Shown piece after piece: positions 27,368-43,523 of a stretch of 64,000 nucleotides of DNA (positions within the stretch are counted from its first letter, which is position 1; each line of letters opens with the position of its first letter). The notes beneath the pieces were generated by a model that was not told where the DNA came from, made no database searches, and saw only the letters and a program-made list of their open reading frames with translations. Origin of the DNA: Jiella marina (lineage in GTDB: Bacteria > Pseudomonadota > Alphaproteobacteria > Rhizobiales > Rhizobiaceae); contig NZ_JAKQZG010000002.1 of the NCBI RefSeq assembly GCF_024359545.1, forward strand, positions 372,001 through 436,000, written 5' to 3'. Position numbers and translations under genes: made by a program.

Positions 27368-30300
27368 CGTCCTTCAATCTTTCCGACTGGGCCCTCAGAC
27401 ATCGCTCGCTGATCTGGTTCTTCATGGCGATCGCCTGCGTGGCGGGGATCCTGTCCTACCTCAATCTCGGCCGCGAGGAAGACCCGGACTTCGCCATCAA
27501 GACCATGGTGGTCTCCGGTGCGATGCCGGGCGCGACGGTGCGCGAGATGACCGAACAGGTCACCGACCGCATCGAGAAGAAGCTCCAGGAACTCGATAGC
27601 CTCGATTACACCCGCTCGATCACCACGCCGGGCCAGTCGGTGATCTTCGTCAATCTGCTTCCCACCACGCCGGCCGGCCGGATCGACGAGATCTGGACCC
27701 GCGTGCGCCACATGATGACGGATATCCGCGCCGATTTTCCCAGCGAGTTCAGGGGATTTGCCTTCAACGACCAGTTCGGCGACGTGTTCGGCAACATCTA
27801 TGCCTTCACCGCCGACGGCCTGAGCCACCGGCAATTGCGCGACTATGTCGAAGAAGTGCGCACGGAAGTGCTGCAATTGGAGGAGGCGGGCAAGGTCGAA
27901 CTCGTCGGCGCACAGGACGAGGTGATCTATCTGGAGTTCTCGCTCCGCAAGACCGCCAGTCTCGGCATCGACCAGCAGTCGATCATCAATACGCTCCAGT
28001 CCCAGAACGCGATCGCCCCGTCCGGCGTGATCCAGTCCGGGCCGGAGCGCATCTTCGTCCGGGTCTCCGGCCAGTATACGTCCGAGGAGAGCCTTCGCGA
28101 GGTCAACCTCAGGGTCAACGACCGCTTCTTCCGCCTCAGCGACGTCGCGACCATCACCAGGGGCTATGAAGACCCGCCCCAGAGCCTGTTCCGCTACAAT
28201 GGCGAACCAGCGATCGGGCTTGCCATCGGCATGCGCGAAAACGGCAACATCCTCGATTTCGGCGAGGCGCTGAACGAGAAGATGACCGAGGTCGGGAACG
28301 AGCTTCCCGTCGGCATCGACATTCACCGCGTGGCCGACCAGTCGGCGGTGGTGGAGGAATCGGTCGGCGGCTTCACCCGCGCCCTGTTCGAGGCGGTCGC
28401 CATCGTGCTGGCCGTCAGCTTCGTCAGCCTCGGCTTCCGGGCGGGCCTCGTCGTCACCCTGTCGATCCCGCTCGTGCTCGCGCTCACCTTCGTCGGCATG
28501 GAGATGTACGGGCTGACGCTCCAGCGCATCTCGCTGGGCGCGCTGATCATCGCGCTCGGTCTCCTCGTCGACGACGCCATGATCGCCATCGAGACCATGG
28601 TCTCGCGGCTGGAGGCCGGCGACAGCCGCGAGAAGGCGGCGAGCTTTGCCTGGACCTCGATCGCCTTTCCGATGCTCTCGGGCACCCTGGTGACGGTCGC
28701 CGGCTTCCTGCCGATCGGTTTCAACAACTCGAACGCCGGCGAATACACCTTCTCGCTCTTCGTGGTGATCGCGCTGTCGCTGCTCCTGTCGTGGGTCGTC
28801 GCCGTCCTGTTCACGCCGCTGATCGGGGTGAAGCTTCTGCCGCGCACCATGCATCAGCACGACGCCAAGCCGGGCTTCGTCCGTCGCGCCTTCTCGAAGA
28901 TGCTGCGGGCGGTGATGCGTTTCCGCTGGCTGACGATCCTCGTCACGGTCGCGCTCTTCGCCCTGTCGCTCTACGGCATGCGCTTCGTGCAGCAGCAGTT
29001 CTTCCCGACCTCTGACCGGCCGGAACTGGTGGTCGACTTCACCCTCCGCCACAACGCCTCGATCGCCGAGACGCGAGCCCAGATGGACAAGCTCGAGGCG
29101 ACGCTCGTCGGCGACGAGGATGTCGACCACTGGAGCTCCTATGTCGGCCGTTCGGCCCAGCGCTTCATCCTGGCCTATGACGTCCAGCCCGCCAATCCGT
29201 TCTTCGGCCAGGTGGTCATCGTCAACAAGAGTCTGGAAGCCCGCGACCGGGTCCGCGAGAAGCTTCAGGCTTTCGCCCGCGAGGAACTCGTCGGCACCGA
29301 CGTCTATGTGAAGAACCTCGAACTCGGTCCGCCGGTCGGTCGTCCGGTGCAGTACCGCATCGGCGGACCGGACATCGAGACGGTGCGCACGAAGGCGCGG
29401 GAACTGGCCGCTCTCGTCGCCGAGGACGAGCGGCTGCGTTCGATCGTCATGGACTGGAACGAACCGGCCCGCGAGCTGAAGGTCGAGATCCTTCAGGACA
29501 AGGCGCGACAGCTCGGCGTTTCGTCGCAGCAAATCGCCTCCAACCTCAATCTCATCCTCGACGGTTCCACCATCACCCAGATCCGCGACGGCATCTATCT
29601 CATCGACGTGGTGGCGCGCGGCCGGCAGTCGGACCGCGACACGATCGAGGCGATCGAGAACCTGCAGCTCACCAGTTCCAGCGGTCAGGCGATCCCCCTC
29701 GCAACACTCGCGAGCTATCGCTACGAATATGAAGACCCGATCCTCTATTCGCGTTCGCGCGTGCCGACCATCACGGTCAAGGCGGCGATCGCCGGGTCGG
29801 CCCAGCCTGCGACCATCGTCACCGATCTTCAGCCCCAGATCGACGCGTTCCGCGAGGATCTGCCGCCGGAATACTCCGTCGAGGTCGGCGGTGCGGTGGA
29901 ATCGAGCGCCGAAAGCCAGGGGCCGATCGCGGCCGTCGTGCCGGTGATGCTCGTCGCGATGCTGACTTTGATCATGGTCCAGATGCAGAGCTTCCGCTCC
30001 ATGCTCGTGGTGCTCAGCGCAGCGCCGCTCGGCCTCATCGGCGTCGTCGCGGCGCTGGTGCCCTCCGGCGCCCCGCTCGGCTTCGTGGCCATCCTCGGCG
30101 TTCTGGCCCTGGTCGGCATCCTCATCCGCAACTCGATCATCCTCGTCCATCAGGTCGACGTGTTGCGCGAGGAGGGGCTGCATCCCTGGGTCGCCGTCTA
30201 CAAGGCGAGCGAGATGCGCGCCCGGCCGATCCTGCTGACGGCCGCTGCCGCGTCTCTGGCGCTGATCCCGATCGCCCGCGAGGTGTTCTGGGGGCCGATG

Positions 30301-30450
30301 GCCTATGCCATGATGGGCGGCATCATCGCCGGAACGCTGATCACGCTCCTCTTCGTGCCGGCGCTCTACCTCGCCGTCTTCCGGATCAAGAGGCCGGATG
30401 ATGTCGATGCGGAGCTGGCCGCGGCGGATGCCAAGCTGCCCAATATGTAA
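27364..30450 (+). CDS. RND efflux transporter, inner-membrane pump
   Basis: A 1,028-residue pump with a GTG start overlapping the previous stop (GTGA). Twelve membrane segments are expected; the first (about 17-34) follows the short cytoplasmic start MTSFNLSDWALRHRS. The proton-relay aspartates are seen in GLLVDDAMIAIE (about 398-409). Two large periplasmic loops (about 35-335 and 560-860) and GAPLGFVAILGVLALVGILIRNSI near TM10/11 are typical. It expels toxic hydrophobic compounds driven by protons. The divergent MarR gene is its probable regulator. Substrate is unknown; features fit multidrug (HAE1-like) rather than metal pumps. Confidence 0.9.
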   Translation: MTSFNLSDWALRHRSLIWFFMAIACVAGILSYLNLGREEDPDFAIKTMVVSGAMPGATVREMTEQVTDRIEKKLQELDSLDYTRSITTPGQSVIFVNLLPTTPAGRIDEIWTRVRHMMTDIRADFPSEFRGFAFNDQFGDVFGNIYAFTADGLSHRQLRDYVEEVRTEVLQLEEAGKVELVGAQDEVIYLEFSLRKTASLGIDQQSIINTLQSQNAIAPSGVIQSGPERIFVRVSGQYTSEESLREVNLRVNDRFFRLSDVATITRGYEDPPQSLFRYNGEPAIGLAIGMRENGNILDFGEALNEKMTEVGNELPVGIDIHRVADQSAVVEESVGGFTRALFEAVAIVLAVSFVSLGFRAGLVVTLSIPLVLALTFVGMEMYGLTLQRISLGALIIALGLLVDDAMIAIETMVSRLEAGDSREKAASFAWTSIAFPMLSGTLVTVAGFLPIGFNNSNAGEYTFSLFVVIALSLLLSWVVAVLFTPLIGVKLLPRTMHQHDAKPGFVRRAFSKMLRAVMRFRWLTILVTVALFALSLYGMRFVQQQFFPTSDRPELVVDFTLRHNASIAETRAQMDKLEATLVGDEDVDHWSSYVGRSAQRFILAYDVQPANPFFGQVVIVNKSLEARDRVREKLQAFAREELVGTDVYVKNLELGPPVGRPVQYRIGGPDIETVRTKARELAALVAEDERLRSIVMDWNEPARELKVEILQDKARQLGVSSQQIASNLNLILDGSTITQIRDGIYLIDVVARGRQSDRDTIEAIENLQLTSSSGQAIPLATLASYRYEYEDPILYSRSRVPTITVKAAIAGSAQPATIVTDLQPQIDAFREDLPPEYSVEVGGAVESSAESQGPIAAVVPVMLVAMLTLIMVQMQSFRSMLVVLSAAPLGLIGVVAALVPSGAPLGFVAILGVLALVGILIRNSIILVHQVDVLREEGLHPWVAVYKASEMRARPILLTAAAASLALIPIAREVFWGPMAYAMMGGIIAGTLITLLFVPALYLAVFRIKRPDDVDAELAAADAKLPNM

Positions 30451-30495
30451 GGATGGCCGCGCCCCGAAGATGGCGTTGGGGGCGAAGATTGAGCG

Positions 30496-30909
30496 CTACA
30501 GCCCCCGCTCGCCTTCGCCGACGCGCCCGACCGCGGGCGGTGGCTCGATGCTCGATCCGAACGGCCCGGCGCGGGTCAGGTAGTCCGACAGCGTCAGGCC
30601 GAAGAGGATCGTCAGCCAGACGATTCCAGCCATCCCCGACAGCACCACGACGGTCATCGCCCGCCGCATGTGCATGAAGAAGATCAGCACCAGCGCGGCC
30701 ATGACCGCGGCGATCAGGAGCGAGACGAGAAGGCTGAGCGAGCCGAAGAGCGGCAGGAGGGCGAGGATCAGTGACAGGGCGGCGAGGCCGACGAGGGCCG
30801 CAAAGACGGTCACTTCGGGAAAGAGGTCGAGCCCTTCGAAGGCCCGCTTTGCCCGCGCCGACATCGTATCCTTCGCGGCGGCACCCGCTTTTTCGCTCTG
30901 GGCGCTCAT
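30496..30909 (-). CDS. Cytochrome c oxidase subunit IV, caa3 type
   Basis: A 137-residue membrane protein with three hydrophobic segments (about 33-55, 60-82 and 92-112). The motif LIFFMHMRRAM followed by WLTILFGLTLSDYLTR is the signature of bacterial subunit IV of caa3/aa3 oxidases (COX4_pro). The start at 30909 overlaps the coxC stop (ATGA). It is the last gene of the ACIII-caa3 run. Its function is stabilisation of the oxidase. The RND pump gene is convergent, with a 45-nt gap. Confidence 0.82.
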   Translation of the reverse strand: MSAQSEKAGAAAKDTMSARAKRAFEGLDLFPEVTVFAALVGLAALSLILALLPLFGSLSLLVSLLIAAVMAALVLIFFMHMRRAMTVVVLSGMAGIVWLTILFGLTLSDYLTRAGPFGSSIEPPPAVGRVGEGERGL

Positions 30910-31580
30910 CCGGCCCTCCCGGCGAGATAGAGAAGCGGCCACAGGAACAGCCACATCAGATCGACGAAGGCCCAGTACAGCCCGGCGATGCGAACCCTGG
31001 AATTGTCGGACAGCGAGAAGTTGCGCCGCCGCGCCATCTCCCAGATGACCGCCCAGATGCCGAGCCCCACCGTCATGTGCACCGCATGGAGGCCGGTCAT
31101 CACCCAGTAGAGTGACCAGAACAGCTTCGCCGCCGGCGCTTCGAGCGGAAAGTCGGGGCTGGTCGGGTAGAGGTGATGGTGGATGTCGAGCCAGTACTCG
31201 AAACCCTTGGCTGCCAGGAAGGCGAGGCCGAGAAGGATGGTGATCCCGATCAGGAGAAGAACGGCATCATGCCGGTTCTGGCCCGCCGCCTTCACCGCCA
31301 GCGCCGCCGTCAGGCCCGAGGTGAGCAGGATCGCGGTGTTGATCGTGCCGATGAGGATCTCGGTCTCGGCCGCCGCCTCGAAGAACGGTCCGGGATGGAG
31401 CAGCGCATAGACCAGATAGGCCGCGAACAGCCCACCGAAGAACAGGATTTCGGTCGCAAGGAAGATCCACAGGCCGAGATCGTGAGCGGCCTTCTGCTGG
31501 GAGAGATCGTGAAAGTGGGAGGCGAGGGCGCGGGGCGGCAGGGCCGCCGCCTCCTGTCCGGGAAAAGGGGTCTTACTCAT
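30906..31580 (-). CDS. ctaE: Cytochrome c oxidase subunit III, caa3 type
   Basis: A 224-residue protein with about five to seven hydrophobic segments. The opening [29 protein letters not shown] is the classic heme-copper subunit III start, with the conserved Glu in ATEILFF. The middle [15 protein letters not shown] and [17 protein letters not shown] (His pair) are conserved, and the end [18 protein letters not shown] closes the family pattern. It is shorter than mitochondrial-type subunit III, as usual in caa3 oxidases. It overlaps coxA by 8 nt and coxD by 4 nt. Confidence 0.9.
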
Positions 31581-33231
31581 CGCGCGGATTCCGTCGCGGA
31601 TGATAGGCGTAGACGTCGCCGGAGACGTCCGGATTGGCCAGGAAATTATGCTTGGGCGGCGGCGAGGTGGTCTGCCATTCGAGCCCGTGGGCGCGCCAGG
31701 GATTGCGACCCGCCTTGCGACCCCAGATCAGCGACCAGGCGAGATAGAAGAGCGGCATCAGATAGGCCGCCGCCAGGATCACCGCGCCCGCCGACGACAG
31801 GACGTGCCAGACCTGAAACTCGTCCGGATAGGCGTGGTAGCGTCGCGGCATGCCGATATTGCCGAGGATGAACTGGGGGAAGAAGGTCAGGTTGAAGCCG
31901 AAGAACATCAGCATCGCCGCGATCCGCGCCGCCGTCTCGGGATACATCCGACCGGTGATCTTCGGCCACCAGAAATGCAGGCCGGCGAAGAAGGCCGATA
32001 CCATGCCGCCCACCATGATGTAGTGGAAATGGGCGACGACGAAATAGGTGTCGTGCATGTGAAGATCGACGGGCACCGAGGCGAGGAACAGCCCGGTCAG
32101 TCCGCCCATGGTGAACAGGCCGACGAAGCCCATGGCATAGAGCATCGAGGCCTCGAAGGTGATCTGGCCGCGATAGAGCGTCGCCGTCCAGTTGAACACC
32201 TTGATCGCCGAGGGCACCGCCACGATGAAGGACAGGAAGGAAAAGGTCAGCGAGGCGTACATGGACTGCCCGCTCGTGAACATGTGGTGGCCCCAGACGA
32301 AGAAGCCGATCACCGCGATCGCCAGCAGCGCATAGACCATCGCCTTGTAACCGAAGACCCGGCGCCGCGCGAAGCAGGTGATCACCTCGGTCACCACGCC
32401 CATGCCGGGCAGGATCATGATGTAGACGGCCGGATGGGAGTAGAACCAGAACAGGTGCTGGAACAGGATAGGGTCGCCGCCATACTCCGGATTGAAGATG
32501 CCGAGCCCGAGCAGGCGTTCCGTGATCAGGAGCGTCAGCACGATGGCGAGCACCGGCGTCGACAGAAGCATGATCAGGCTGGTCGCATAGATCGCCCAGA
32601 CGAAGAGCGGCATGCGGAACCAGCCCATGCCGGCCGGGCGCATCGTATGGACGGTGACGATCATGTTGACGCCGGTGGCGATCGTCGAGAAGCCCGAAAT
32701 AAACACGCCGATCGCCGTCAGCGAGACGTGGGAATTTGCGAAAGCCGTCGAATAGGGGGTGTAGAAGGTCCAGCCGGTGTCGACGCCGCCGGCCAGCATC
32801 GCCCAGACGGCGAAGCCGCCGCCGATGATGTTGAGATACCAGGAGGCGAGATTGAGCCGGGGGAAGGCGAGGTCCTTCGCCCCCAGCATCAAGGGAATGA
32901 GGAAGTTGCCGAGCACCGAGGGGATCACCGGCACCAGGAAGAACCAGACCATGACCACGCCGTGGAGCGTGAACACCTTGTTGTAGCCGTCGTCGGTCAG
33001 AAGGTCGCCGGCGGGGGTGAAGAGCTCCAGCCGGATCAACACCGCCGCCGCGCCACCGATGAAGAAGAAGAACGTCGTCGAGATCAGATAGAGAATGCCG
33101 ATGCGTTTGTGGTCGGTGGTCGTCAGCCAGGACCAGAGCGAGAAGCGCTCCTCCAGATAGTTCGCCTCGGCGGTGCTCGGGCCCGCCTCGTCCTCTTCGA
33201 GGTCGACGTCTCTAAACGGAATGTCGCTCAT
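31573..33231 (-). CDS. ctaD: Cytochrome c oxidase subunit I, A2-type (caa3 oxidase)
   Basis: A 552-residue catalytic subunit that reduces oxygen to water and pumps protons. Heme and copper ligands are present: low-spin heme His in [10 protein letters not shown] (about 88), CuB His and cross-linked Tyr in YSHPAVY (about 263-269), CuB His pair in WGHHMFTSG, and heme a3/a His in [11 protein letters not shown]. The proton-channel Glu of A1 oxidases (HPEVY) is absent; the YSHPAVY form defines A2-type enzymes such as those of Thermus and Rhodothermus. About twelve membrane segments. It overlaps coxB by 4 nt. Confidence 0.93.
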
Positions 33232-34187
33232 GGCGTCCCCCCGGTTGCGGTGGCGTCGCGACGGCCCAGGCTGCGGATATAGGCGGTGAGGGCGACGAGT
33301 TCGCCTTCGTCGAGGGCGCCGGCAAAGCTCGGCATGATCGGCGCAAACCCGGCCACAACGTCCTTCTTCGGCTGCAGGATGGAATCGCGGATATAGGCGT
33401 CGTCTGCCGTCACCGTGCGCCCATCGGCCAGCGGTACGGGCCCGCCGAACACCCCTTCGAGCCGCGGCGCCCGCACCTTGGACGAGCCCTCATGGCAGCC
33501 GGCACAACCGCGCGAAACGAAGAGCTGCCGTCCTTCGGTACTCAGATCGTCGCCCTCCGGCTGTATCGACAGCCAGTCGGCATAGGCTTCCTTGGAAAGG
33601 ACCACGACCCGGCCGATCATCGCCGAATGCTCCGAGCCGCAATATTCGGCGCAGAACAGCCGGTAGGTGCCGGTGCGGGTAGGGCGGATGCGCATCCGCG
33701 TCGTATGGCCGGGCACCACGTCCTGCTTCAGCCGGAAGGCCGGAATGTAGAAGGAATGGATCACGTCCTGGCTGTTGAGCACGAGGTCGATCGTTTCGCC
33801 GACAGGCAGGTGCAGCTCGTTGATCTCGCGCTGGCCGCCGGGATGCTCGATCTTCCACATCCATTGCTTGCCGACGGCATGCACCTCGGTGGCCCGCTGT
33901 GGCGGCACGGCGAGGGCGAAATCTTGCGAGGCCGCCCAGGCGAAGATCGCGACGAAGAGACCACCGGTGGCGAGCGTCCAGCCGAGTTCGAGGTCGCTGT
34001 CGAACCAGGCCGGCAGGCGTCCGCGGCTCGCCTTCGAGCCCTTGCGGTAGCGGATGGCGAAGATGCCGACGAGGCCCGCGACCAGGAGTGTGATCAGGCT
34101 CGAAATGATGATGAGGCCCAAAAGCTTGCCGTCGGTGGAACCGGCCTCGACGCTCGCCTGCGGCAGGATGATCTCGATCTCACCCAT
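33228..34187 (-). CDS. ctaC: Cytochrome c oxidase subunit II with fused cytochrome c domain (caa3)
   Basis: About 319 residues from ATG 34187 (GGGGAGAA upstream). Two membrane segments (about 22-48 and 67-88) precede the CuA domain: [10 protein letters not shown] supplies a His ligand and [12 protein letters not shown] the Cys-Cys-His-Met set (about 181-192). A cytochrome c domain follows, with heme motif CAGCH (about 231-235) and a likely Met ligand in PIMPSF near the end. The covalently attached cytochrome c makes this a caa3 oxidase. It overlaps the SCO gene by 8 nt and coxA by 4 nt. Electrons would arrive from the adjacent ActE/ACIII. Confidence 0.92.
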
Positions 34188-35049
34188 GGCCGTTCTCCCC
34201 GGCCGGGAGGGGCGTGATGCCAGCCTGTCGCTCCGGTCGGGACCGGCGCCTTTCGCGAAGAAGCATGAGGCCGACGAAGCCGGCGACCAGCGCCACCGTA
34301 CCGCCGCATCCCGCCAGAAGCATCCGGTCGACGAGCGGCGTATAGCGGCCGGTCTCCGCATCCCAACCGTAGCAGGAGAGGATCGCCCGTTCGATGATCG
34401 TGCCGGCCTTGCCGCCCGACGCCTCGATCAGGGCGAAGCGGAGCGTTTCGGGCTCGAGCGAGACGAGATCGAGGGCGCGGACGATCCGCCCATTCGCCCC
34501 GACGAGCAGTGCCCCGGCAGGGTGGGCGAACTGGTCGCGCGTGTCGTCATAGGAGGTCTTCAGCCCGGCCGCGTCGATCAGACGGGCGGTGTCGGTGGCC
34601 GAGGTCGACAGGAACGCGGCCTCGCCGAGCGATGCGGCCTGCGGATTGCCGGCGAGCCAGGCGGCGCGGTCCTCGGCGTTGTCCCGCGGATCGAAACCGA
34701 TGACGAGGATGCGATGGTCGATGCCGCCCTCCTTCAACGCGGCTTCGGCCGCCGCGAGGGCATTGACCGCGACGCCACAGACGGTCTCGCAGGTATAGTC
34801 GACGAAGGCGACGAGGCCGGCTTCGCCCCCGAGCCGGGCACCGAGGTTTGCCGTCTTCCCCGCCGCGTCGTCGAAGGGGATGTCGGCAGGGAGCGTCCGG
34901 CCTGCCCGGTCGGCAAAACCGACATCACTCAATTCGGCGCGCGTGAGTCCGGCCTGAGCCGGTCCTGACAGGGTGGCAGCAATCGTCCAGACAGCGAGCA
35001 TCAGGGTCGCAGCGCCGCGGCGGATGGAGATGCGCAACCGGCCGGTCAT
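34180..35049 (-). CDS. SCO-family copper chaperone with C-terminal membrane anchor
   Basis: A 289-residue protein. An N-terminal signal or anchor (about 10-33) leads to a thioredoxin-like SCO domain. Copper ligands are CETVC (C-x3-C, about 90-94) and a His in FAHPAGALLV (about 172). The 90-residue C-terminal part has SCYGWDAETGRY, then a hydrophobic segment (about 243-265) and a basic tail. This extended form is typical of SCO proteins encoded with alternative complex III. It would load the CuA site of the oxidase encoded directly downstream. Overlaps: ATGA with the gene before, 8 nt with coxB. Confidence 0.85.
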   Translation of the reverse strand: MTGRLRISIRRGAATLMLAVWTIAATLSGPAQAGLTRAELSDVGFADRAGRTLPADIPFDDAAGKTANLGARLGGEAGLVAFVDYTCETVCGVAVNALAAAEAALKEGGIDHRILVIGFDPRDNAEDRAAWLAGNPQAASLGEAAFLSTSATDTARLIDAAGLKTSYDDTRDQFAHPAGALLVGANGRIVRALDLVSLEPETLRFALIEASGGKAGTIIERAILSCYGWDAETGRYTPLVDRMLLAGCGGTVALVAGFVGLMLLRERRRSRPERQAGITPLPAGENGHG

Positions 35050-35660
35050 CCGCCGCCCCCCGTCTGGCTCTGCGATCCGGGATCGGGTGTGCGATAGGTC
35101 GGCGTGCCGGAAAGCTCCGAGGCCGGGACCCGCGTGTCTTCGCCTTCGAGCCCCGGCATGGCCGGTCCGCTTTCGCCAGCCTCTGTTTCGCCGGCCGTCG
35201 GTGCCATCGCGCCGGTGCCAGCCCCGGCGGTGAAGCCGGCGGGCGCCAGCGTGCCGCCGCTCGCCCTTCCTGCCGCGATCTGCGCCGCCATGGCGCGTTT
35301 GGAGGGCGAATCCGGAACGTCGGCGGGGTCGAGAAGCGGCGCGAGCGGATCGCCGCGTTCGAGCAGCCGCTCCATCGCCGCCTCGATCGGCATCGCTCCC
35401 TCGATCAGCGCCTTCTGCTGACGGCGTTCGGCTTCCAGGAGGTCCACCGCCGGGTTCACTTGGAGCCGAGGCGCAGGAAACTCGGAAGCTTGTTCCTCCG
35501 CCATCTCGGTCGGCCAGATGCCGAGCATGTACTGAAACGCCCCGGCGAGAAGCGCCATGACGAGAATCGCCGTGCCGAGGGCGACCAGAACCGGAAGGAC
35601 GACCCGGCGGGCGGGAACGTCGGCGTCGGCCTGGATCGGGGTCGCGAGTTCCTCGCTCAC
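35046..35660 (-). CDS. Unassigned single-pass membrane protein in the ACIII-caa3 operon
   Basis: A 204-residue protein I do not recognise. It has a GTG start overlapping the actF stop (GTGA). One hydrophobic segment (about 20-46) follows a short N-terminus with RR, which suggests a periplasmic C-terminal part. Residues about 58-120 look ordered (FPAPRLQVNPAVDLLEAERR, with ERLLERGDPLAPLL later). The end is rich in Gly, Ala, Pro and Ser and probably disordered. Similar small anchored proteins occur between ActF and SCO in other ACIII operons as I recall, sometimes labelled ActG-like, but I cannot confirm the match. A structural subunit or assembly factor is the best guess. Confidence 0.6.
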   Translation of the reverse strand: MSEELATPIQADADVPARRVVLPVLVALGTAILVMALLAGAFQYMLGIWPTEMAEEQASEFPAPRLQVNPAVDLLEAERRQQKALIEGAMPIEAAMERLLERGDPLAPLLDPADVPDSPSKRAMAAQIAAGRASGGTLAPAGFTAGAGTGAMAPTAGETEAGESGPAMPGLEGEDTRVPASELSGTPTYRTPDPGSQSQTGGGG

Positions 35661-36757
35661 GGAGCGCCTCCCGTGGCTCGGGCGGCAGTGCTGCGCCGGC
35701 TTTCATCGCTTGAGCGCGAGCGGCTCCGTCCGCCGCCCTTCGCCGCGGCGATCATTGCCATGGCCGCGGCGGCAAGGGCAATGAGTGAGAAGACCACGCC
35801 CAGCGCATTGTCAAAGGTCGGCGCCATTTCCCACCAGAGGAACAGAAGTGCCGCGACGAGGGTGACGAGCCCGGCGAAGCGGGTGGCACTGCGGCTTTGC
35901 CTGAGCGCGGTGCGGCTGAGGATGACGAAGGCGAGCGCCGCCGCGCCGAGTGAAAGGATCAGGACCCCCTGCCAGAGAACCGAACCGCGCAGGAGATAAT
36001 ACTCGACCTTCTCCGGCAGATTGCCCGACCATTGGACGAGAAACTGCATGAATGTCATGTAGACCACGCCGAGAATCGAGGCGAGCGTGAGCTTGGCAAG
36101 GTCGTCGCGGGGACGGGCCTCGCCGCCCGCATCGACCCAGAGAAGCAGCGCCAGAGCGATGGCGATCTGGGTGATGGCGAAGAGCGCGCCAAAGGTGGTG
36201 GAGGCCCAATGGGGCTCCAGCGACATGATCCAGTCGATCGCGGCGAAATTCACGGTGAAGGCGTAAAGCGCGAGAAAGAGGCCGCTGGCGATGCGATTGA
36301 CGAAGGCGAGCCCCGCCGCCGAGACCGCCATTGCCGACCAGAGCGCCAGGATGAAGACGAGGCGGATGCCGAAACCGAGCGGGTTGAGATAAAGGCTTGC
36401 AACCGCCGGCCGCTCGGAGAGGGCTCCTTCGCCGATCCAGGGATAGATGGCGAACTGCAAGACGATCAGAGCCAGACCGGCGATTGACACGAAGGGAACT
36501 GTCGCCGCCAAGCCTTCCAGGGTGGGCCGCGCCGCCTCGCCCCAGAAGCCGCCGGTCAGCCGGTGGGCGTGCAACAGGACGCTCGCCCCCATGCCGGCCG
36601 AGATCGCGAGCACGAAGGCGGCGAGATAGGCCTCTGCCATCGCTTCGGCCGCCAGAATGACGAGGATGACCGCCGCCAGCGCCAGGATCGCGAAGAGCCG
36701 CTGGGATTGCGGAGGCTGCGCCCGGACATGTCTGAGGAAACGACCGGCAAGGCTCAT
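35657..36757 (-). CDS. actF: Alternative complex III subunit ActF (quinol-side membrane subunit)
   Basis: A 366-residue integral membrane protein with about ten hydrophobic segments, starting at ATG 36757 inside the actE stop (ATGA). FAAIDWIMSLEPHWASTTFG (about 170-189) is the characteristic stretch of ActF/NrfD-like proteins, as is LNPLGFGIRL before it and VEYYLLRGSVLWQG after. ActF pairs with ActC in the membrane part of the complex. The C-terminal tail is basic and Ser/Arg-rich. Next gene overlaps by GTGA. Confidence 0.85.
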   Translation of the reverse strand: MSLAGRFLRHVRAQPPQSQRLFAILALAAVILVILAAEAMAEAYLAAFVLAISAGMGASVLLHAHRLTGGFWGEAARPTLEGLAATVPFVSIAGLALIVLQFAIYPWIGEGALSERPAVASLYLNPLGFGIRLVFILALWSAMAVSAAGLAFVNRIASGLFLALYAFTVNFAAIDWIMSLEPHWASTTFGALFAITQIAIALALLLWVDAGGEARPRDDLAKLTLASILGVVYMTFMQFLVQWSGNLPEKVEYYLLRGSVLWQGVLILSLGAAALAFVILSRTALRQSRSATRFAGLVTLVAALLFLWWEMAPTFDNALGVVFSLIALAAAAMAMIAAAKGGGRSRSRSSDESRRSTAARATGGAP

Positions 36758-37344
36758 CGGCCGGCCTCCCCGCCTGCGTCCGCCATCTCGCCGGCGCCGG
36801 CGAGCTGCAGCGCGCGGATATAGGCCGCGATCGCCCAGCGGTCGCGCGGCTCGACGCGGGCGGCGTAGGAGTACATCACTCCCCAGCCATTGGTGATGAC
36901 GTCGACGAAATGCTCGGCCGGCGCGGCCCGGAGGCGTGGCTCCATGTAGGAAGGCGGCGGCGGAAAGCCGCGCTCGACGATGATCCCGTCGCCCCGGCCA
37001 GCGAGTCCGTGGCAGGGCGTGCAGTAGATCTCGTATTGCGCGCGCCCCCGATCGAGCAGCGCGGCGTCGACTTTCGGCGGCGTCCGCAGGGCGGCGATCC
37101 GCTCGGGCTCGTCGCGCGCCACCGTGCCGAAGGGAATGGCGCGCGCCTCGGCATTCTGGTCGAATGCTTCGGCCGAGGAATAGGGCTTCAGCTTGGGTTG
37201 CTCGACCATGTCGTTGCAGGCGGAGACGAGGCCGGCGCAGAGGAGGAGTGCGAGGATGCGTGCAGCACGAGCGCACGGCCACTGACCCCCGGACAACAGG
37301 GCGACAAGAGCGGGAGCGGGAGGAGAGTCAGATGGCTGTCGCAT
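36754..37344 (-). CDS. actE: Alternative complex III subunit ActE, mono-haem cytochrome c lipoprotein
   Basis: About 196 residues. A signal peptide with the lipobox LVSA-C (Cys near 43) anchors it to the membrane. It holds one haem-binding CTPCH (about 108-112) in YEIYCTPCHGLAGRGDG, with the likely Met ligand in GVMYSYAARV. This is the electron exit of the complex, handing electrons to the cytochrome c domain of CoxB. ATG 37344 lies inside the 3' end of actD (17-nt overlap), with a GGAGAGGGG sequence before it. Confidence 0.87.
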   Translation of the reverse strand: MRQPSDSPPAPALVALLSGGQWPCARAARILALLLCAGLVSACNDMVEQPKLKPYSSAEAFDQNAEARAIPFGTVARDEPERIAALRTPPKVDAALLDRGRAQYEIYCTPCHGLAGRGDGIIVERGFPPPPSYMEPRLRAAPAEHFVDVITNGWGVMYSYAARVEPRDRWAIAAYIRALQLAGAGEMADAGGEAGR

Positions 37345-37879
37345 CGCCCCTCTCCTGTATCGTGATCGGCCGGTACCGGTCGAGAACCGCCCGCACTTCG
37401 CCATCGGCTTCCTGGTCGCCGCGAAGCTCGATCTCGAGAAAGAAGCGGTCGTCGCTCGCGCGCTCGAAACCCTCCCAGTCGAAGACGCGATGGTTGAGCC
37501 TCGGCAGGTTCGAGCCGATGATCATGGTGAGGAAGCCGCCGATCGCCGCCGAGATGATGGTGATCTCGAAGGTCACCATCATGAAGGCCGGCCAGGCGTT
37601 ATAGGGCCTGCCGCCGGAATTGAACGGATAGGCGACGACCGAACTCCAATATTGCAGGAAGAAGGCGGCGAGCGCCCCGCATATCGCGGCCACGACCATG
37701 ATCGTCCGCACCTTCGAGGGTCCGGCGCCTCGCGCCGAAAGCACGTCATCGATCTCCGACAGGGCATAGGGCGAATAGGTCTCGAAGCGATGCGGGCCTT
37801 TGGTGCCCACGAGTTCGCGCACGGCCGAAACCAGCGCGTCTGCGGTCGAAAACTCGGCCATGATCATCCGCACAGTCAT
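37328..37879 (-). CDS. actD: Alternative complex III subunit ActD
   Basis: A 183-residue protein starting at ATG 37879 within the actC stop (ATGA). The N-terminal 55 residues are soluble (AEFSTADALVSAVRELVGTKG, with FETYSPYALSEIDDVL). Two membrane segments follow (about 60-80 and 98-120), including YPFNSGGRPYNAWPAF between them, the recognisable ActD stretch (DUF3341). The C-terminal part, DDRFFLEIELRGDQ, returns to the cytoplasm. ActD helps hold the membrane and peripheral parts together; it binds no cofactor. Confidence 0.87.
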   Translation of the reverse strand: MTVRMIMAEFSTADALVSAVRELVGTKGPHRFETYSPYALSEIDDVLSARGAGPSKVRTIMVVAAICGALAAFFLQYWSSVVAYPFNSGGRPYNAWPAFMMVTFEITIISAAIGGFLTMIIGSNLPRLNHRVFDWEGFERASDDRFFLEIELRGDQEADGEVRAVLDRYRPITIQERGDATAI

Positions 37880-39264
37880 CGCGCCGCGCCCTCCTTGTGG
37901 GCGAGTTCGCGAATCTCGTGGATCGAGGCGGCCGGGATCACTTTGGCGAAAAGGAAGAACAGGAAGCAGAACAGGCCGAAGGAGCCGAGGAACATCAGCC
38001 AGTCCCAGATGGTCGGGACGTAGAAGGAGAAGGTCGATGGCAGATGGCCGTGGGCGAGCGTGTTCATGTTGATGAGAATACGCTCGAGCCACATGCCGAC
38101 ATTGACCAGCACGCCGACGATGAACAGCGGCACGAGGCCGCGCCGGAAGCGGCGCCACCAGAAGAGCTGCGGCGCCAGACCGTTACAGGCGAGCATCATC
38201 CAGTATAGCCAGCCATAGGGCCCGAAGAACTGGAAGGCGATCAGGCTGCGCTCGGCCTCGCCGCCGGAATACCAGCCGGCGAACCATTCGAACGAGTACG
38301 AGAAGCTCATGATGATCCCGCCGAGAAGCAGGATCTTCGCCATCGCGTCGAGATGATCGAGGGTGATGATCGACTGAAGGCCGAGGGCCCAGCGGATCGG
38401 GATCGTCAGTGTCACCACCATGGCGAAGCCGGAGAACATCGCGCCGACGACGAAATAGGGAGGAAAGATCGTCTCCTGCCAGCCGGGCATCAGCGTCGCG
38501 GCATAGTCGAGGCCGACGACGGAGTGGATCGAGACGACCAGCGGCACGCCAAGGGCTGCCATCGCGTAGTAATAGGAATTGTAGTTCTTCCACTGGCGGG
38601 ACGAGCCGTTCCAGCCGAGGGCGAAGATGCCATAGGCGACCTTGGTGAAGCGGTGTTTGGCCTTGTCGCGCAGGGTGGCGAGGTCGGGGATGAGGCCGGT
38701 GTACCAGAACAGGATCGAGAACAGGATGTAGCAGGCGATCGCGAACATGTCCCAGACGAGTGGCGAGCGCCATTGCGGCCACAAGGTCATGGTGTTCGGA
38801 TAAGGCGCCAGCCAATAGGCGAGCCACGGCCGCCCCACGTGAAGCAGCGGGAAGATGCCGGCGATCGCCGCCGCAAACAGCGTCATCGCCTCGGCATAGC
38901 GGTTGATCGAGGCGCGCCAGCGCTGGCGGGTCAGAAGCAGCATGCAGGAGATCAGCGTGCCGGCATTGCCGATGCCGATCCACCAGACGTAGTTCGCGAC
39001 CGCAAAGCCCCAGACCACCTCGGAATTGACGCCCCAGATGCCGGTGCCTTCGACGAGAAGCACGAGGATCGAGATGCCGAAGAGGATGACGCCGAGAAAC
39101 GACACGCCGACCAGCACCAGCCACAGGCGCGAGGGCTTCCGGAAGATCGCCGCGGCCACCTCGTCGGTGATCGTGCCATAGGGCATTTCGGCGGGCATCA
39201 GCCCGTCGCGCGTGCGCCCGTGATTGGCGATCAGTTCGCGGCCGGTGAGGGTTGCGTCGCTCAT
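37876..39264 (-). CDS. actC: Alternative complex III subunit ActC (NrfD/PsrC-like, quinol-binding)
   Basis: A 462-residue membrane protein with about ten segments, of the NrfD/PsrC family. Typical stretches: WGVNSEVVWGFAVANYVWWIGIGNAG (about 75-100), RYAEAMTLFAAAIAGIFPLLHVGRPW (about 121-146) and SHSVVGLDYA-like HSVVGLDYAATLMPGW (about 240-255). It carries the quinol oxidation site in known ACIII structures, passing electrons to ActB. Overlaps actB and actD by ATGA on both sides. Confidence 0.92.
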   Translation of the reverse strand: MSDATLTGRELIANHGRTRDGLMPAEMPYGTITDEVAAAIFRKPSRLWLVLVGVSFLGVILFGISILVLLVEGTGIWGVNSEVVWGFAVANYVWWIGIGNAGTLISCMLLLTRQRWRASINRYAEAMTLFAAAIAGIFPLLHVGRPWLAYWLAPYPNTMTLWPQWRSPLVWDMFAIACYILFSILFWYTGLIPDLATLRDKAKHRFTKVAYGIFALGWNGSSRQWKNYNSYYYAMAALGVPLVVSIHSVVGLDYAATLMPGWQETIFPPYFVVGAMFSGFAMVVTLTIPIRWALGLQSIITLDHLDAMAKILLLGGIIMSFSYSFEWFAGWYSGGEAERSLIAFQFFGPYGWLYWMMLACNGLAPQLFWWRRFRRGLVPLFIVGVLVNVGMWLERILINMNTLAHGHLPSTFSFYVPTIWDWLMFLGSFGLFCFLFFLFAKVIPAASIHEIRELAHKEGAAR

Positions 39265-42251
39265 GTCGCGTCGCCCTCCTCGTCTGGGGCCTTTGCCGCG
39301 CCGAGCTCGGGCTGGACATGGGCCAGATAGGTGGTGCGCGGCCGCGTGCCGAGCTCCGCCAGCAGCGCGTAATGATGCGGCTCTTCGCGCAGCCGGTTCA
39401 CCGCCGAACCCTTCTCGGACAGATTGCCGAAGCTGATCGCCTCGGTCGGGCAAGCCTGCTGGCAGGCGGTGACGACCTCGCCCTCGGCGATGATCCGCCC
39501 CTCGCGCGTCGCCTCGCGGCGGGCGCCGGAAATCCGCTGGACGCAATAGGTGCATTTTTCCATGACGCCGCGCGCCCGGACGGTCACATCCGGGTTCTGC
39601 AGGGCATTCAGCATCGGGTCGCCGAGATCGGCATATTCCTGGCCGGCCGCATAGCCGAAGAAATTGAACCGGCGCACCTTGTAGGGACAGTTCGACTGGC
39701 AGTCGCGCGTGCCGACACAGCGATTGTAGACTTGGACGTTCAGCCCTTCGGAATCATGGATCGCCGCCTCGACCGGGCACATCGGCTCGCAGGGCGCCTT
39801 TTCGCAATGCATGCAGGGCACCGGCTGCGTTGCGACCCTTGGCGCATCCTCCTCGCCCTCGAAATAGCTGTCGATGCGCAGCCAGTGCATGTCCCGGCCG
39901 CGGCGGATCTCCTCCGGCCCGACGACCGGCACGTTGTTCTCGGCCTGGCAGGCGACGACACAGGCATTGCAGGCGATGCAGAGCGTCTGGTCGATCACCA
40001 TCGCCCATTCATAGGGACCGCGCTCGAATTCCGGGAAGAGCGTCGGCGGTTCGCCTTCGAAATGCGCGCCGGTCTCGTGACCTTCGTCGAGATCGCCGAG
40101 CGGCACGGTGCGCACGATCTCGCGGCCCTCCATCTGATGCGACCCTTGCGTTGTCGCCAGCGTGACATGGGCGCCGATGGGCGTCGCGGTCGCCTCAGTG
40201 AACCACAGGCTGTCCCTCGTGCGCAGCGGATAGACGTCGGTGCCGATGCCGCGGGCGATCGAGCCGATCGTGCGGCCATAGCCGAGTGTCACGCCGATCG
40301 TGCCGCGCGCCTGACCGGGCACGGCCATGGTCGGGATGGTGATGCGCTGCTCGTCCGCCGTGTCGAGGGCGATGAGCGAGCCGTCGCGAAGCCCCAGCGC
40401 GCGATGATCCGCCGGGTGCATCGCCGCCGCATTTCCCCAGACCTCGGAGGTGATCGGCCGCGGCGTTTCCTGCAGCCACGCATTGTTGGAGAACCGACCG
40501 TCCCAGACGCTGGTGTCGGGGTTGAACACGATCTCGAAGGCGCCGTCGCCCGGCGGGGCGTCGGAGAGCGGTGGGAGATCGAAAGCGCCGGGTTGCGAGA
40601 AGTCGCTCGAAGGGGCTCCGTCGGCTCCCTCGACCCCGGTGTCGGGGACGAGGCCGGTTGCGAGGACGTTTCGCCAGAAATCCTCGAAACCGCCTTGGGC
40701 CGCCTCGTCGGAGCCGCCGCCGCTGCGGCGCTGGCTCCAGGTTTCGTAGACCGCCTGATGGCTGCTGACCGCATAGTCGCCGGCAAGGGCCGCCAGAAGC
40801 GACAGCGGCGAATGGCCTTCATAGAGCGGCGAGACCAGCGGCTGGACGATCGAGACGAGCCCGGACTTCGCCCGCGTGTCCCCCCACTCCTCCAGGGGAT
40901 GAAGCTGCGGGATCTGCCAGCGGCACGCTTCGCTCGTCTCGTCCTGATAGAGCGAGAGATGAACGCTCGTCGGCACCGCTTCGAGCGCGCCGGCAAAATC
41001 GAGGTCGGCCGGGGCCGTATAGACCGGGTTCGCGCCGAAGATGACGAGTTCCTGGACGGCCTCATCCCGCATGCGTTCGGTGAGGCTGGCCAGTGCTTCG
41101 GCTGACGTTCCGGCGGTCTGTTCGATGATCGGCGGCAGAATCCGGACGGTCTCGCCCAGCGCGCCGAGATGGGCGTTGATCCGGTGCGCGAGCGCGTGGA
41201 CATGCGGCGGCTGCGCCTCGCCCACCATGACGAGCGCGGCTTGTCCGGCGCCGCGAAGCTCGGCGGCGAGCGTTTCGACAAAGGCCTCTTCCCGTCCCTT
41301 GAGCCCATCGGGGGCCACGATGCCGGGCACGCCCAGCGCGGCGGCCGTCGCGCGGAGTAGCCGGTCACCGCGCGAGCGGGGAAGCGGCAGCCGCAGATCG
41401 GCGGTGGCGCCGGTGCCGGACATCACCGGCTCGGCGACGGCGAGCCGCGTCATGGTTCGGCTGCCGGTGCGGACCTTGCGCCCTTGTGCGAAGGCGCGGG
41501 CGAGCCCGACCTGTTGCGGGCCCGGTCCGAGGAAGTCGGCGTCGAGGGCGAAGATCGCCTTCGCCCGATCAGGGTGCCAGGCGAGGGCTCCGTCGTCGCC
41601 GAAGGCCAGACGAACGCCCGCCCGCTCATTGTCCCGGCCGACCGGCTCGAAGACGGTGTGCCGCAGCTTCGGAAAGCTCTCTTTCAGCGCCGCCATCAGG
41701 CGTTGGAATGTCGGCGAGGAGACCGCGCCGGTCAGGATTTCGAGCCCGTCGCCCTCGCTCTCCTGCCAGCGCGCCCGCATGCGGGTCAGGTCGCCGAGGA
41801 AATCGTCATAGGTCGAAAAGCGTCGGTCCTTCCTCACCAGCGAGGCGCGGCCGGGATCGTAGAGCGAGAGCACCATCGCCTGATGGAAGGCGTCGGTGCC
41901 GCCGAGCGAGGCCGGATGGTCGGGATTGCCGTCGATCTTGGTGGGCCGGCCTTCGTGGCTTTCGGCGAGGAGGCCGGTGGCGATGCCTTCGAGTTCGAAG
42001 GCCGTGGCGAAATAGCGCGGCTTGCCGGCGACGAGCCCTTCCGGCATCGTCACATAGGGCACGATCTCCTCCGCCGGCGCCGAACAGGCGGTGAGCGGGA
42101 TCGCGGCCGAAAGCCCCATCAGTTTCAGGACGCTGCGCCGGTCGAACGTCGTGGATCGCGCCTCGGGCAGAAGCTCCTCGCCGGAGGGAGCCGGCCAGCT
42201 GTCCGAAACGAAGGCCTCGCGCGGCCGGAAGGGGGTGGGAGACGAACTCAT
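39261..42251 (-). CDS. actB: Alternative complex III subunit ActB (molybdopterin-enzyme-like plus iron-sulfur domain)
   Basis: A 996-residue fusion. An N-terminal Tat-like motif DRRSVLKLMG (about 37-46) directs export. Residues about 60-740 resemble a molybdopterin oxidoreductase, which in ACIII carries no Mo cofactor. Residues about 750-950 are a ferredoxin domain with four cysteine groups: CIACNACVVAC, CMHCEKAPCEPMC, CVGTRDCQSNC and CTYC...ACQQACP, enough for a 3Fe-4S and three 4Fe-4S clusters in this family. It relays electrons from ActC to ActA. Overlaps actA and actC by ATGA. Confidence 0.93.
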   Translation of the reverse strand: MSSSPTPFRPREAFVSDSWPAPSGEELLPEARSTTFDRRSVLKLMGLSAAIPLTACSAPAEEIVPYVTMPEGLVAGKPRYFATAFELEGIATGLLAESHEGRPTKIDGNPDHPASLGGTDAFHQAMVLSLYDPGRASLVRKDRRFSTYDDFLGDLTRMRARWQESEGDGLEILTGAVSSPTFQRLMAALKESFPKLRHTVFEPVGRDNERAGVRLAFGDDGALAWHPDRAKAIFALDADFLGPGPQQVGLARAFAQGRKVRTGSRTMTRLAVAEPVMSGTGATADLRLPLPRSRGDRLLRATAAALGVPGIVAPDGLKGREEAFVETLAAELRGAGQAALVMVGEAQPPHVHALAHRINAHLGALGETVRILPPIIEQTAGTSAEALASLTERMRDEAVQELVIFGANPVYTAPADLDFAGALEAVPTSVHLSLYQDETSEACRWQIPQLHPLEEWGDTRAKSGLVSIVQPLVSPLYEGHSPLSLLAALAGDYAVSSHQAVYETWSQRRSGGGSDEAAQGGFEDFWRNVLATGLVPDTGVEGADGAPSSDFSQPGAFDLPPLSDAPPGDGAFEIVFNPDTSVWDGRFSNNAWLQETPRPITSEVWGNAAAMHPADHRALGLRDGSLIALDTADEQRITIPTMAVPGQARGTIGVTLGYGRTIGSIARGIGTDVYPLRTRDSLWFTEATATPIGAHVTLATTQGSHQMEGREIVRTVPLGDLDEGHETGAHFEGEPPTLFPEFERGPYEWAMVIDQTLCIACNACVVACQAENNVPVVGPEEIRRGRDMHWLRIDSYFEGEEDAPRVATQPVPCMHCEKAPCEPMCPVEAAIHDSEGLNVQVYNRCVGTRDCQSNCPYKVRRFNFFGYAAGQEYADLGDPMLNALQNPDVTVRARGVMEKCTYCVQRISGARREATREGRIIAEGEVVTACQQACPTEAISFGNLSEKGSAVNRLREEPHHYALLAELGTRPRTTYLAHVQPELGAAKAPDEEGDAT

Positions 42252-42904
42252 CGATGGCACACGGAGCAATCGGTGAGGTGGTCCTTGCGGATGCCGTAAT
42301 GGGCCAGAAGCGCGCGTCCCTTTCGTCGCTGATCGGCGGGTTTTTCCCAGGCCGTGTTGTAGATTTCGGATTCCGGGCGAAGGTTCTTCGCCGGGTCGCG
42401 ATGGCAATCCAGGCACCAGCCCATGGTCAGCGGTTCGGCCTTGGCCATCAGCGGCATGTCGGCGACGTCGCCATGGCAGGAGGAGCAGCCGACGCCATTG
42501 GTCACATGCACCGAATGGTCGAAATAGACGTAGTCCGCCAGGTCGTGCACCCGGTTCCAGCGGATCGGCGTGTTGGTGGCGAGACTCGCGCGGATCGGCG
42601 CCAGCATCTCGGCATTGGTCCAGATCTGCGAATGGCAGGTCATGCAGGTCTCGGTGGGCGGCAGGCCGGCGAAGGCGGCCTTTTCCACCTGGGTGTGGCA
42701 ATAGCGGCAGTCGATCCCGAGTTCACCGGCGTGATGGCGATGGGAGAAGGGCACCGGCTGCTGCACATAGGCGCCGACGCCGGTGTAGTAGCTGGAGCGG
42801 TAATAGGCGAAGCCGCTGACCGCCATGGTGAGGGGAAGGACGACGAGGGCGAGGAGGCCCAGTCGGAGGAAAAGGTCTGCCCGGGCGGAAAAGAGCTGCG
42901 CCAA
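42248..42904 (-). CDS. actA: Alternative complex III subunit ActA, pentahaem cytochrome c
   Basis: About 218 residues with one N-terminal membrane segment (about 12-36) and five CxxCH haem sites: CRYCH, CMTCH, CSSCH, CLDCH and CSVCH. The number and the spacing fit ActA, the haem-wire subunit of ACIII. No in-frame ATG is usable. I chose TTG 42904 because AAGGGA lies 7 nt upstream; the open frame reaches TTG 42946 but has no such site. It is the first gene of the ACIII-caa3 run; the promoter should lie in 42905-43030. Confidence 0.9.
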   Translation of the reverse strand: MAQLFSARADLFLRLGLLALVVLPLTMAVSGFAYYRSSYYTGVGAYVQQPVPFSHRHHAGELGIDCRYCHTQVEKAAFAGLPPTETCMTCHSQIWTNAEMLAPIRASLATNTPIRWNRVHDLADYVYFDHSVHVTNGVGCSSCHGDVADMPLMAKAEPLTMGWCLDCHRDPAKNLRPESEIYNTAWEKPADQRRKGRALLAHYGIRKDHLTDCSVCHR

Positions 42905-43032
42905 TCCCGATTCCCTTCGACGGTTTCCTATTCCATGCTCGACCAAAAGCTTAGAGGCGGTCCAATCGGCGGCAATGCAATTTCGTCAGGCTCGGTGAAA
43001 TTTTCTCGGATGGCAACCCGCCACGAGGTCAT

Positions 43033-43071
43033 GAAAAGCGAAGACCCCGATTGTTCGGGCACCGGGGTCTT
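43033..43071 (-). terminator. Terminator of the small secreted protein gene at 43099
   Basis: Nine-bp stem AAGACCCCG/CGGGGTCTT (43041-43049 and 43063-43071) followed on the minus strand by CGCTTTTC. It lies 27 nt after the stop and separates this gene from actA. Confidence 0.65.
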
Positions 43072-43098
43072 GGCCATGCCCGCCATTCGCGGCGCGGC

Positions 43099-43326
43099 TC
43101 AATCGCAGACCTTGTAGCGCTTCCACTCGTAGATCGGCTGACCATAAAGGTCGCGGCCGATGACGATCTTCTTTCTCATCCAGCGGCAGTGCTTCTTCTG
43201 GCCGGCGAACTTGTAGTCGCCGAGAAACATGGTGCCGCTGCCATAATGGCTCGCAGCCGCGCCCGAGGCCGTGGCCATTGCGGCAACAGTGAGGGTGGCG
43301 AAGGTGATCAGCGTCTTCTTGAACAT
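43099..43326 (-). CDS. Small secreted basic protein, paralogue of the 43524 gene
   Basis: A 75-residue protein with signal peptide MFKKTLITFATLTVAAMATASGAAA, cut near residue 25. The mature 50 residues end in KKHCRWMRKKIVIGRDLYGQ-PIYEWKRYKVCD, with two cysteines that could form a disulfide. The same C-terminal pattern, KKHCxWxxKKIxIGxDxYGxPIxxWKRxxVC, is shared with the gene at 43524, so the two are tandem duplicates. I do not recognise the family. Both sit between a Crp/Fnr regulator and the ACIII operon on the same strand but have their own terminators. Confidence 0.65.
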   Translation of the reverse strand: MFKKTLITFATLTVAAMATASGAAASHYGSGTMFLGDYKFAGQKKHCRWMRKKIVIGRDLYGQPIYEWKRYKVCD

Positions 43327-43459
43327 GGGGCTTTCCTTGGTTTCCGGATGAAGCCTCGTGCCTCAGCCGATGCGATGAAGCCCTATCGGGACGGCCCGAA
43401 CGCCGCTGTGTCGCGCGTCACAGGCCCGCAATCGCCCGGCGCCTGGTCGCAACGCGCGC

Positions 43460-43493: not shown

Positions 43494-43523
43494 CGTGGTC
43501 TGCTGGTCGAACCGGGGCACTGC

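What the first reader, a model, noticed from the sequence alone, without database searches (positions are those of the whole stretch)
30496..42904. Alternative complex III and A2-type caa3 oxidase encoded as one 12-gene run in an alphaproteobacterium
ActABCDEF, an unassigned protein, SCO and CoxBACD follow each other with overlaps of 4-17 nt at every junction, so they are very likely one transcript. ACIII replaces cytochrome bc1. It is well known in Rhodothermus, Chloroflexus and Flavobacterium but, as far as I know, uncommon in alphaproteobacteria, which normally have bc1. A linked ACIII-caa3 supercomplex would move electrons from quinol to oxygen without a soluble cytochrome c. The operon may be transferred or a conditional second respiratory branch.
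Basis: partly seen in the sequence, partly recalled or inferred. Interest (0 to 1): 0.75.

Follow-up and report, generated by a model that had tools for sequence, protein, structure and literature searches.

The report
Alternative respiratory operon beside cytochrome bc1
Twelve overlapping genes encode a known alternative respiratory complex and its partner oxidase, carried in addition to the usual complex; the system is already described, but in this bacterium it probably works with ubiquinone, whereas the laboratory-studied versions I read about use menaquinone.

Summary
Twelve minus-strand genes (42904 to 30496) overlap at all 11 junctions by 4-17 nt: actABCDEF, a small gene, sco, coxBACD. 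The small "unassigned" gene is actG: two profiles pick out Chloroflexus ActG in the PDB (E 5e-4 and 9e-7), and a family member sits there in 71 of the 71 readable relatives. The oxidase is an A2-type caa3 (YSHPAVY).

The interpretation needs correcting. ACIII does not replace bc1: this genome has Rieske, cytochrome b and c1, and cytochrome b occurs in all 15 ACIII genomes checked. ACIII is uncommon in alphaproteobacteria (4 of 384 other sampled genomes; 6% of species in PMC8076601), but Act-linked A2 operons are in print there as "COX operon type a-I". ActB, ActC and CoxA all group with Jiella, Aurantimonas and Mangrovicella, against recent transfer into this strain. Patchy presence, two Aurantimonadaceae lineages and plasmid copies suggest older transfer and loss.

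Open point: UbiG is over its cut-off in 16 of 16 genomes, MenD and MqnE in none, so this ACIII most likely oxidises ubiquinol.

The parts
42248..42904 (-). actA, pentahaem cytochrome c with one N-terminal membrane helix; TTG start
   Evidence: 5 CxxCH; PDB ACIII chain A hits, best E 6e-74, start aligned to Chloroflexus Met1
39261..42251 (-). actB, fused molybdopterin-enzyme-like and 4Fe-4S protein
   Evidence: Roseiflexus ACIII chain B E 1.3e-253 over 56-980; Fer4 domains
37876..39264 (-). actC, NrfD-like quinol-binding membrane subunit
   Evidence: PF03916; four ACIII ActC chains E 4e-144 to 5e-124; His139, Asp169, Asp253, Ser245 equivalents kept
37328..37879 (-). actD
   Evidence: PF11821 159.7 bits, cut-off 25.7; Glu122 equivalent kept, read by eye
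36754..37344 (-). actE, monohaem cytochrome c
   Evidence: 1 CxxCH; PF13442
35657..36757 (-). actF, second NrfD-like membrane subunit
   Evidence: four ACIII ActF chains E 1.8e-15 to 2.5e-7; Tyr284 equivalent kept, read by eye; no Pfam hit
   Evidence: Profile of 30 members hits Chloroflexus ActG 8k9e_G, E 5.4e-4 for the whole chain, 0.0086 for the best stretch; second profile without the window E 8.8e-7, next hit 0.7; member in 71 of 71 readable relatives
34180..35049 (-). SCO/SenC copper chaperone
   Evidence: PF02630 25.0 bits, cut-off 22.8; CxxxC
33228..34187 (-). coxB, oxidase subunit II with CuA and fused cytochrome c
   Evidence: TIGR02866 over cut-off; CuA motif and CxxCH
31573..33231 (-). 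coxA, A2-type subunit I
   Evidence: TIGR02891 over cut-off; YSHPAVY, as in 75 of 75 relatives whose CoxA frame has 400 or more residues
30906..31580 (-). coxC, subunit III
   Evidence: PF00510 over cut-off
30496..30909 (-). coxD, subunit IV
   Evidence: PF03626 26.3 bits, just under cut-off 28.9; position

Best explanation
This is the alphaproteobacterial form of a known unit, actABCDEFG-sco-coxBACD. ActC takes electrons from ubiquinol at the periplasmic face and passes them through ActB's first Fe-S cluster, then the ActA and ActE haems. They go directly, inside an ACIII-caa3 supercomplex, to the cytochrome c domain of CoxB, CuA and CoxA, which reduces O2. It is a second route beside bc1, which would feed the aa3, cbb3 and other oxidases of this genome. 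The operon was probably held by the common ancestor of this strain and the Jiella/Aurantimonas/Mangrovicella group and lost by some relatives; deeper in the tree it has moved between lineages, with copies on plasmids. Shown by sequence: gene content, residues, coexistence with bc1, quinone-pathway genes, tree placement. Inferred: single transcript, electron path, supercomplex, proton pumping, conditional use, gain and loss.
For: Subunits and cofactor motifs. ActG, in the position it has in Chloroflexus actABCDEFG (PMC3150298). Gene order in 68 of 70 complete loci. Rieske, cytochrome b and c1 here; cytochrome b in 15 of 15 ACIII genomes. UbiG over cut-off in 16 of 16, MenD in 0 of 16, MqnE in 0 of 16; the 16 are 15 ACIII genomes plus G020. 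Trees and AU test. Direct transfer to caa3 and a supercomplex map are reported for R. marinus (PMC5928083, passages).
Against: No expression or biochemical data. The flanking genes are not shared with the 80 relatives in the flanks held, so descent in place is not shown. The only other genome of the genus in the family sample lacks ACIII. ActB is only 62-66% identical to the nearest relatives L009-L013, while ActC is 77-81% and CoxA 85-90%, and the ActB tree pairs the window with L013 (support 70) rather than with the Jiella group. CoxB-like proteins of other operons in this genome also carry haem c, so ActE might serve other oxidases too.
Confidence: 0.82

Rival explanations
1. Recent horizontal transfer of the whole operon into this strain.
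For: Patchy presence: 10 of 120 other family genomes and 4 of 384 other class genomes. Genus-mate G020 lacks ActD, and the 40 kb that hold its RND and GGT orthologues show no blastn match to the operon. No shared flanking genes with relatives in the flanks held. Plasmid copies in other taxa.
Against: ActC, CoxA and ActB place the window with Jiella, Aurantimonas and Mangrovicella (7-row set, support 99, 100 and 100; joined tree). CoxA identity falls roughly with CtaD: Jiella 89-90% against 95%, Mangrovicella 83% against 90%. GC is like the rest of the window.
Confidence: 0.12
2. ACIII here hands electrons to soluble cytochrome c and the other oxidases rather than to its own caa3.
For: ACIII can reduce soluble carriers (PMC5928083). 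F. johnsoniae ActE is dispensable for transfer to aa3 and is speculated to serve other acceptors (PMC8552683, passages). This genome has five further haem-copper subunit I genes.
Against: Fixed linkage with one A2 caa3 in 68 of 70 complete loci; haem c fused to CoxB.
Confidence: 0.2
3. The small gene is an unrelated protein and not ActG.
For: The window protein alone has no Pfam hit; identity to the 29 aligned members is 21-44%; in the first profile the best matched stretch alone has only E 0.0086; the two profiles share one sequence (L081).
Against: Both profiles give ActG as the best PDB hit, far ahead of the next; same position, one helix, same IPIxxAMxxxxxRG motif.
Confidence: 0.07

Closest known systems
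Alternative complex III (R. marinus, F. johnsoniae, C. aurantiacus, R. castenholzii)
   Same: ActA-F all present with cofactor motifs and quinol-site residues; ActG as in Chloroflexus
   Different: Coexists with bc1 (reported for some species in PMC5928083); genome has UbiG and no MenD or MqnE over cut-off; pocket Phe89 is Tyr here and in 74 of 82 proteobacterial sequences, the window included
COX operon type a-I / A2 subtype a-I (PMC4013037; PMC6431628)
   Same: Act (Nrf-like) cluster attached to COX genes, COX2 fused to a c-type cytochrome, A2-type COX1; reported in Azospirillum brasilense and Inquilinus limosus
   Different: Nothing essential seen; a further taxon, near Jiella/Aurantimonas. 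The figure with the gene order was not available to me
Rhodothermus marinus ACIII-caa3 supercomplex (PMC5928083)
   Same: Same two enzymes encoded together
   Different: Physical association untested here; ActH not looked for (the paper found no homologues outside R. marinus and close relatives)

Membership tests
Alternative complex III | Pentahaem ActA and monohaem ActE | tested here: met
   5 and 1 CxxCH
Alternative complex III | ActB fused B1+B2, homologous to solved ActB | tested here: met
   cluster cysteines not counted
Alternative complex III | ActC with His139, Asp169, Asp253 quinol-site residues | tested here: met
   all three kept
Alternative complex III | ActD (PF11821) with conserved Glu; ActF with conserved Tyr | tested here: met
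   residues read by eye from the alignments
Alternative complex III | ActG (not in all clusters) | tested here: met
Alternative complex III | Quinol:cytochrome c oxidoreductase activity, proton pumping | not testable with these tools
   needs membranes or purified enzyme
A2-type caa3 oxidase | YSHPxV helix VI motif in place of GHPEV (rule recalled) | tested here: met
   YSHPAVY
A2-type caa3 oxidase | Subunit II with CuA and fused cytochrome c | tested here: met
   CuA motif and CAGCH
COX operon type a-I | Act cluster joined to A2 COX genes, COX2 fused to cytochrome c | tested here: met
   definition from passages of PMC4013037 and PMC6431628
ACIII-caa3 supercomplex | Physical association and direct electron transfer | not testable with these tools
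   no structure or BN-PAGE possible

The most novel reading that the evidence does not exclude
A ubiquinol-oxidising ACIII. Bacteria with ubiquinone genes and no recognised menaquinone pathway run ACIII beside bc1, although ubiquinol gives roughly half the driving force of menaquinol (ubiquinol potential recalled). Such enzymes should show a lower proton yield or a retuned haem chain, and the recurrent Phe89-to-Tyr change in the ActC quinol pocket may be part of the adaptation. Tyr is found in 74 of 82 sequences of the main proteobacterial set and in 2 of 2 of the Rhizobium/Martelella plasmid lineage, but 8 of 82 keep Phe, so it is not required.
Probability: 0.7. Interest if true: 0.5.

Novelty: new member of a known kind. 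Interest (0 to 1): 0.35.

Why it matters
It gives a natural setting in which bc1 and ACIII share one ubiquinone pool, so their energy yields can be compared in one cell. It ties a gene called 'hypothetical protein' in 7 of 7 annotated plasmid copies, and present in 71 of 71 readable relatives, to ActG, which suggests that ActG is a regular part of the proteobacterial complex.

Tried and rejected
Recent transfer into this strain: rejected as main reading on trees, identity trend and GC. 'ACIII instead of bc1': rejected. A clean empty site in genus-mate G020: not found. RND and GGT orthologues lie about 20 kb apart in another arrangement, with no blastn match to window 30388-44797 in the 40 kb compared. 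Shared flanking genes in relatives: RND, MFP, CRP and GGT were sought in the flanks held of 80 loci (up to 10 kb on each side of actC, less where contigs end); the only hit was a 25%-identical RND in L079. A strict ubiquinone/menaquinone residue signature in ActC: only a trend at Phe89, with 8 of 82 exceptions. A terminator after coxD: folding no better than shuffles (z 0.09). MenD: all 16 genomes have weak hits (at most 94 bits, cut-off 244). MqnE: 3 of 16 have hits of 289-301 bits under the cut-off of 435; they sit in 896-1076-residue frames with two or three matched parts and look like fused FO synthase (my reading, not tested). The CoxA tree's three outgroup rows are very long, so its root is unsure.

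Full report
WHAT IS THERE. The window belongs to an unnamed 5.08 Mb genome (G000, contig C12, 99.08% complete). On the minus strand, twelve genes run from 42904 to 30496 and overlap by 4, 4, 4, 17, 4, 4, 4, 8, 4, 8 and 4 nt (my arithmetic). Family and PDB searches give actA-F, a small gene, SCO, and CoxB, A, C, D. ActA has five CxxCH, ActE one; CoxB has a CuA site and one CxxCH; CoxA has YSHPAVY, the A2 form (the A1/A2 rule is recalled). The ActC residues proposed for quinol binding in R. marinus (His139, Asp169, Asp253; PMC5928083, passages) are kept, as are, read by eye, the ActD Glu and ActF Tyr proposed for coupling.

THE UNASSIGNED GENE IS ACTG. The genome-contig scan found 124 relatives of ActC and kept the best 80, so the set leans to close kin. 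Nine of the 80 could not be read between actF and sco/coxB, because the contig ends there, actF is missing, or the cox genes lie upstream. In the other 71 of 71 a member of one single-helix family sits there (the model was built from the window and part of these same loci, and searched only in their candidate frames). A profile of 30 members finds Chloroflexus ActG (8k9e_G) at E 5.4e-4 for the whole chain, 0.0086 for the best stretch, next hit 0.29. A profile of eight members (seven plasmid loci and L081, which is also in the first profile), without the window, finds it at E 8.8e-7, next hit 0.7. The shared part is the C-terminal IPIxxAMxxxxxRG motif. PMC3150298 (passages) gives the order actABCDEFG in Chloroflexus, and ActG-SCO-four COX genes in its second cluster. 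In 7 of 7 annotated plasmid loci the gene is called hypothetical (L091 and L107 carry no annotation). R. marinus ActG is described as a one-helix subunit not present in all clusters (PMC5928083). A search for papers holding ActG, Proteobacteria, quinol and cytochrome c oxidoreductase gave 0; five papers hold ActG with alternative complex III, of which I read passages of two and saw three only as listings.

RESPIRATORY SETTING. A Rieske protein, cytochrome b and cytochrome c1 lie together on contig C34 of this genome. The cytochrome b marker PF00032 is in 15 of 15 ACIII genomes checked, and in ACIII-less G020. The genome has six haem-copper subunit I genes: an aa3-type with GHPEVY, the window's A2, two further A-family copies (FAHPWVY in an 851-residue frame, GHPEVY in an 885-residue protein), and two cbb3. 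UbiG is over cut-off in 16 of 16 genomes, MenD in 0 of 16, MqnE in 0 of 16 (of 14 named control genomes 2, 7 and 2 are over cut-off). Weaker hits exist: MenD in all 16, MqnE in 3. So this ACIII most likely oxidises ubiquinol. Menaquinol is given as the natural ACIII substrate in PMC8552683 (passages), and the energy budget in PMC5928083 starts from menaquinol at -70 mV with an acceptor at +250 mV. With ubiquinol near +100 mV (recalled) the drop is roughly halved. Of nine papers holding 'alternative complex III', ubiquinol and menaquinol, I read passages of four; in those passages I saw no test of a ubiquinol-linked ACIII.

A WEAK LEAD ON QUINONE CHOICE. At R. marinus ActC Phe89, a pocket residue, six sequences from groups taken to use menaquinone (recalled) have Phe (6 of 6). 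Of 82 sequences in the main proteobacterial set, window included, 74 have Tyr and 8 Phe; two of two in the Rhizobium/Martelella plasmid lineage have Tyr. The eight exceptions are five Acetobacterales and three plasmids of Cupriavidus, Paraburkholderia and Mesorhizobium. Four of 89 loci (L080, L083, L087, L091) were left out for length. This is a trend, not a rule; that the named species use ubiquinone is recalled, not tested. The plasmid lineage also lacks the Asp253 equivalent (2 of 2), though L109 aligns poorly there.

DISTRIBUTION AND HISTORY. ActD (PF11821) occurs in 11 of 121 family genomes and 5 of 385 class genomes, own included; genus-mate G020 lacks it. PMC8076601 (section on taxonomic distribution read) reports ActC/ActF in 46 alphaproteobacterial species, 6%. 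So 'uncommon' is right, but the system is known there: PMC4013037 and PMC6431628 (passages) describe the Act-linked A2 operon as type a-I, the second paper in Azospirillum brasilense and Inquilinus limosus, and the first already suggests a compact quinol-to-oxygen chain.

Quick trees of ActC (90 rows), CoxA (79) and ActB (77) all put the window in one set with L009-L014 (three Jiella, two Aurantimonas, Mangrovicella), support 99, 100 and 100. A joined tree of the window and 37 loci picked by hand agrees (100). The trees differ inside the set: ActC and CoxA put the window next to the Jiella group (99, 99), ActB next to L013 (70). A second Aurantimonadaceae group (three Aureimonas, Consotaella, Aurantimonas sp. 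CSK15Z-1) lies apart in all three; one clade for both is rejected (p-AU 2.5e-8; I chose this test after seeing the ActC tree, and the family labels are NCBI's). In the ActC tree Acetobacterales, Rhodobacterales and Caulobacterales each form one group. The Rhizobium and Martelella plasmid copies fall apart from the main set, beside the Chloroflexi, with support 88, not starred, on a long branch; the four PDB rows meant as outgroup are not one side of any branch, so deep placement is unsure.

CtaD is 95% identical in Jiella and in G020 and 90% in Mangrovicella and Consotaella. CoxA of the operon is 89-90% in Jiella, 83% in Mangrovicella, but 67% in Consotaella, in line with two lineages. ActB is less alike (60-66% in L009-L014). 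The flanks are not shared with relatives as far as held, and G020 shows no clean empty site. Plasmid search: 30 records match ActC, 19 over at least 80% of it; I looked at nine. I conclude: inherited within the Jiella-Aurantimonas-Mangrovicella group with losses, and older transfers among Proteobacteria, some copies being on plasmids. Gain against loss is inference.

OPERON. In the 89 loci compared (80 relatives and nine plasmid loci), 70 hold nine core genes and 68 keep the same order; in L060 and L072 the cox genes lie upstream of the act genes. No promoter-like site was found in 30300-44000, and terminator-like sites are near chance. One transcript is likely but unproven.

VERDICT. A real and well-built operon, a new member of a known kind. 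The bc1-replacement statement does not apply here, and a recent transfer is not supported. The part worth following is ACIII working on ubiquinol beside bc1.

Noticed in passing
window 43524-43772 and 43099-43326 (minus strand): Two related small, apparently secreted Lys/Tyr-rich proteins just upstream of actA; the first holds three SHGFHK repeats. No Pfam hit and no tblastn hit in the loci of the 80 relatives at E 1e-5.
   Followed up: partly
window 43931-44641 (minus strand): CRP-type regulator (cNMP_binding, HTH_Crp_2) upstream of the operon, not found in the flanks held of the 80 relatives.
   Followed up: partly
L101:6834-9389 (own genome C1, about 48.8-51.4 kb): A-family oxidase subunit I with helix VI motif FAHPWVY, neither the A1 GHPEV nor the A2 YSHPxV form; next to a frame with a CuA motif and CxxCH and two small cytochrome c proteins. 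The changed residue at the usual Glu position is unexplained.
   Followed up: partly
L104:5321-10878 (own genome C15): Second cbb3-type oxidase beside a flavohaemoglobin-like protein (globin, FAD and NAD domains) on a 31 kb contig.
   Followed up: no
L089, L106 (Planctomycetota plasmids): The same 12-gene operon with actG sits on roughly 100 kb plasmids of Planctomyces sp. SH-PL62 and Paludisphaera borealis.
   Followed up: partly
L093, L109 (Rhizobium leguminosarum and Martelella mediterranea plasmids): A divergent ACIII lineage whose ActC lacks the Asp253 equivalent of the quinol site (2 of 2; L109 aligns poorly there).
   Followed up: no
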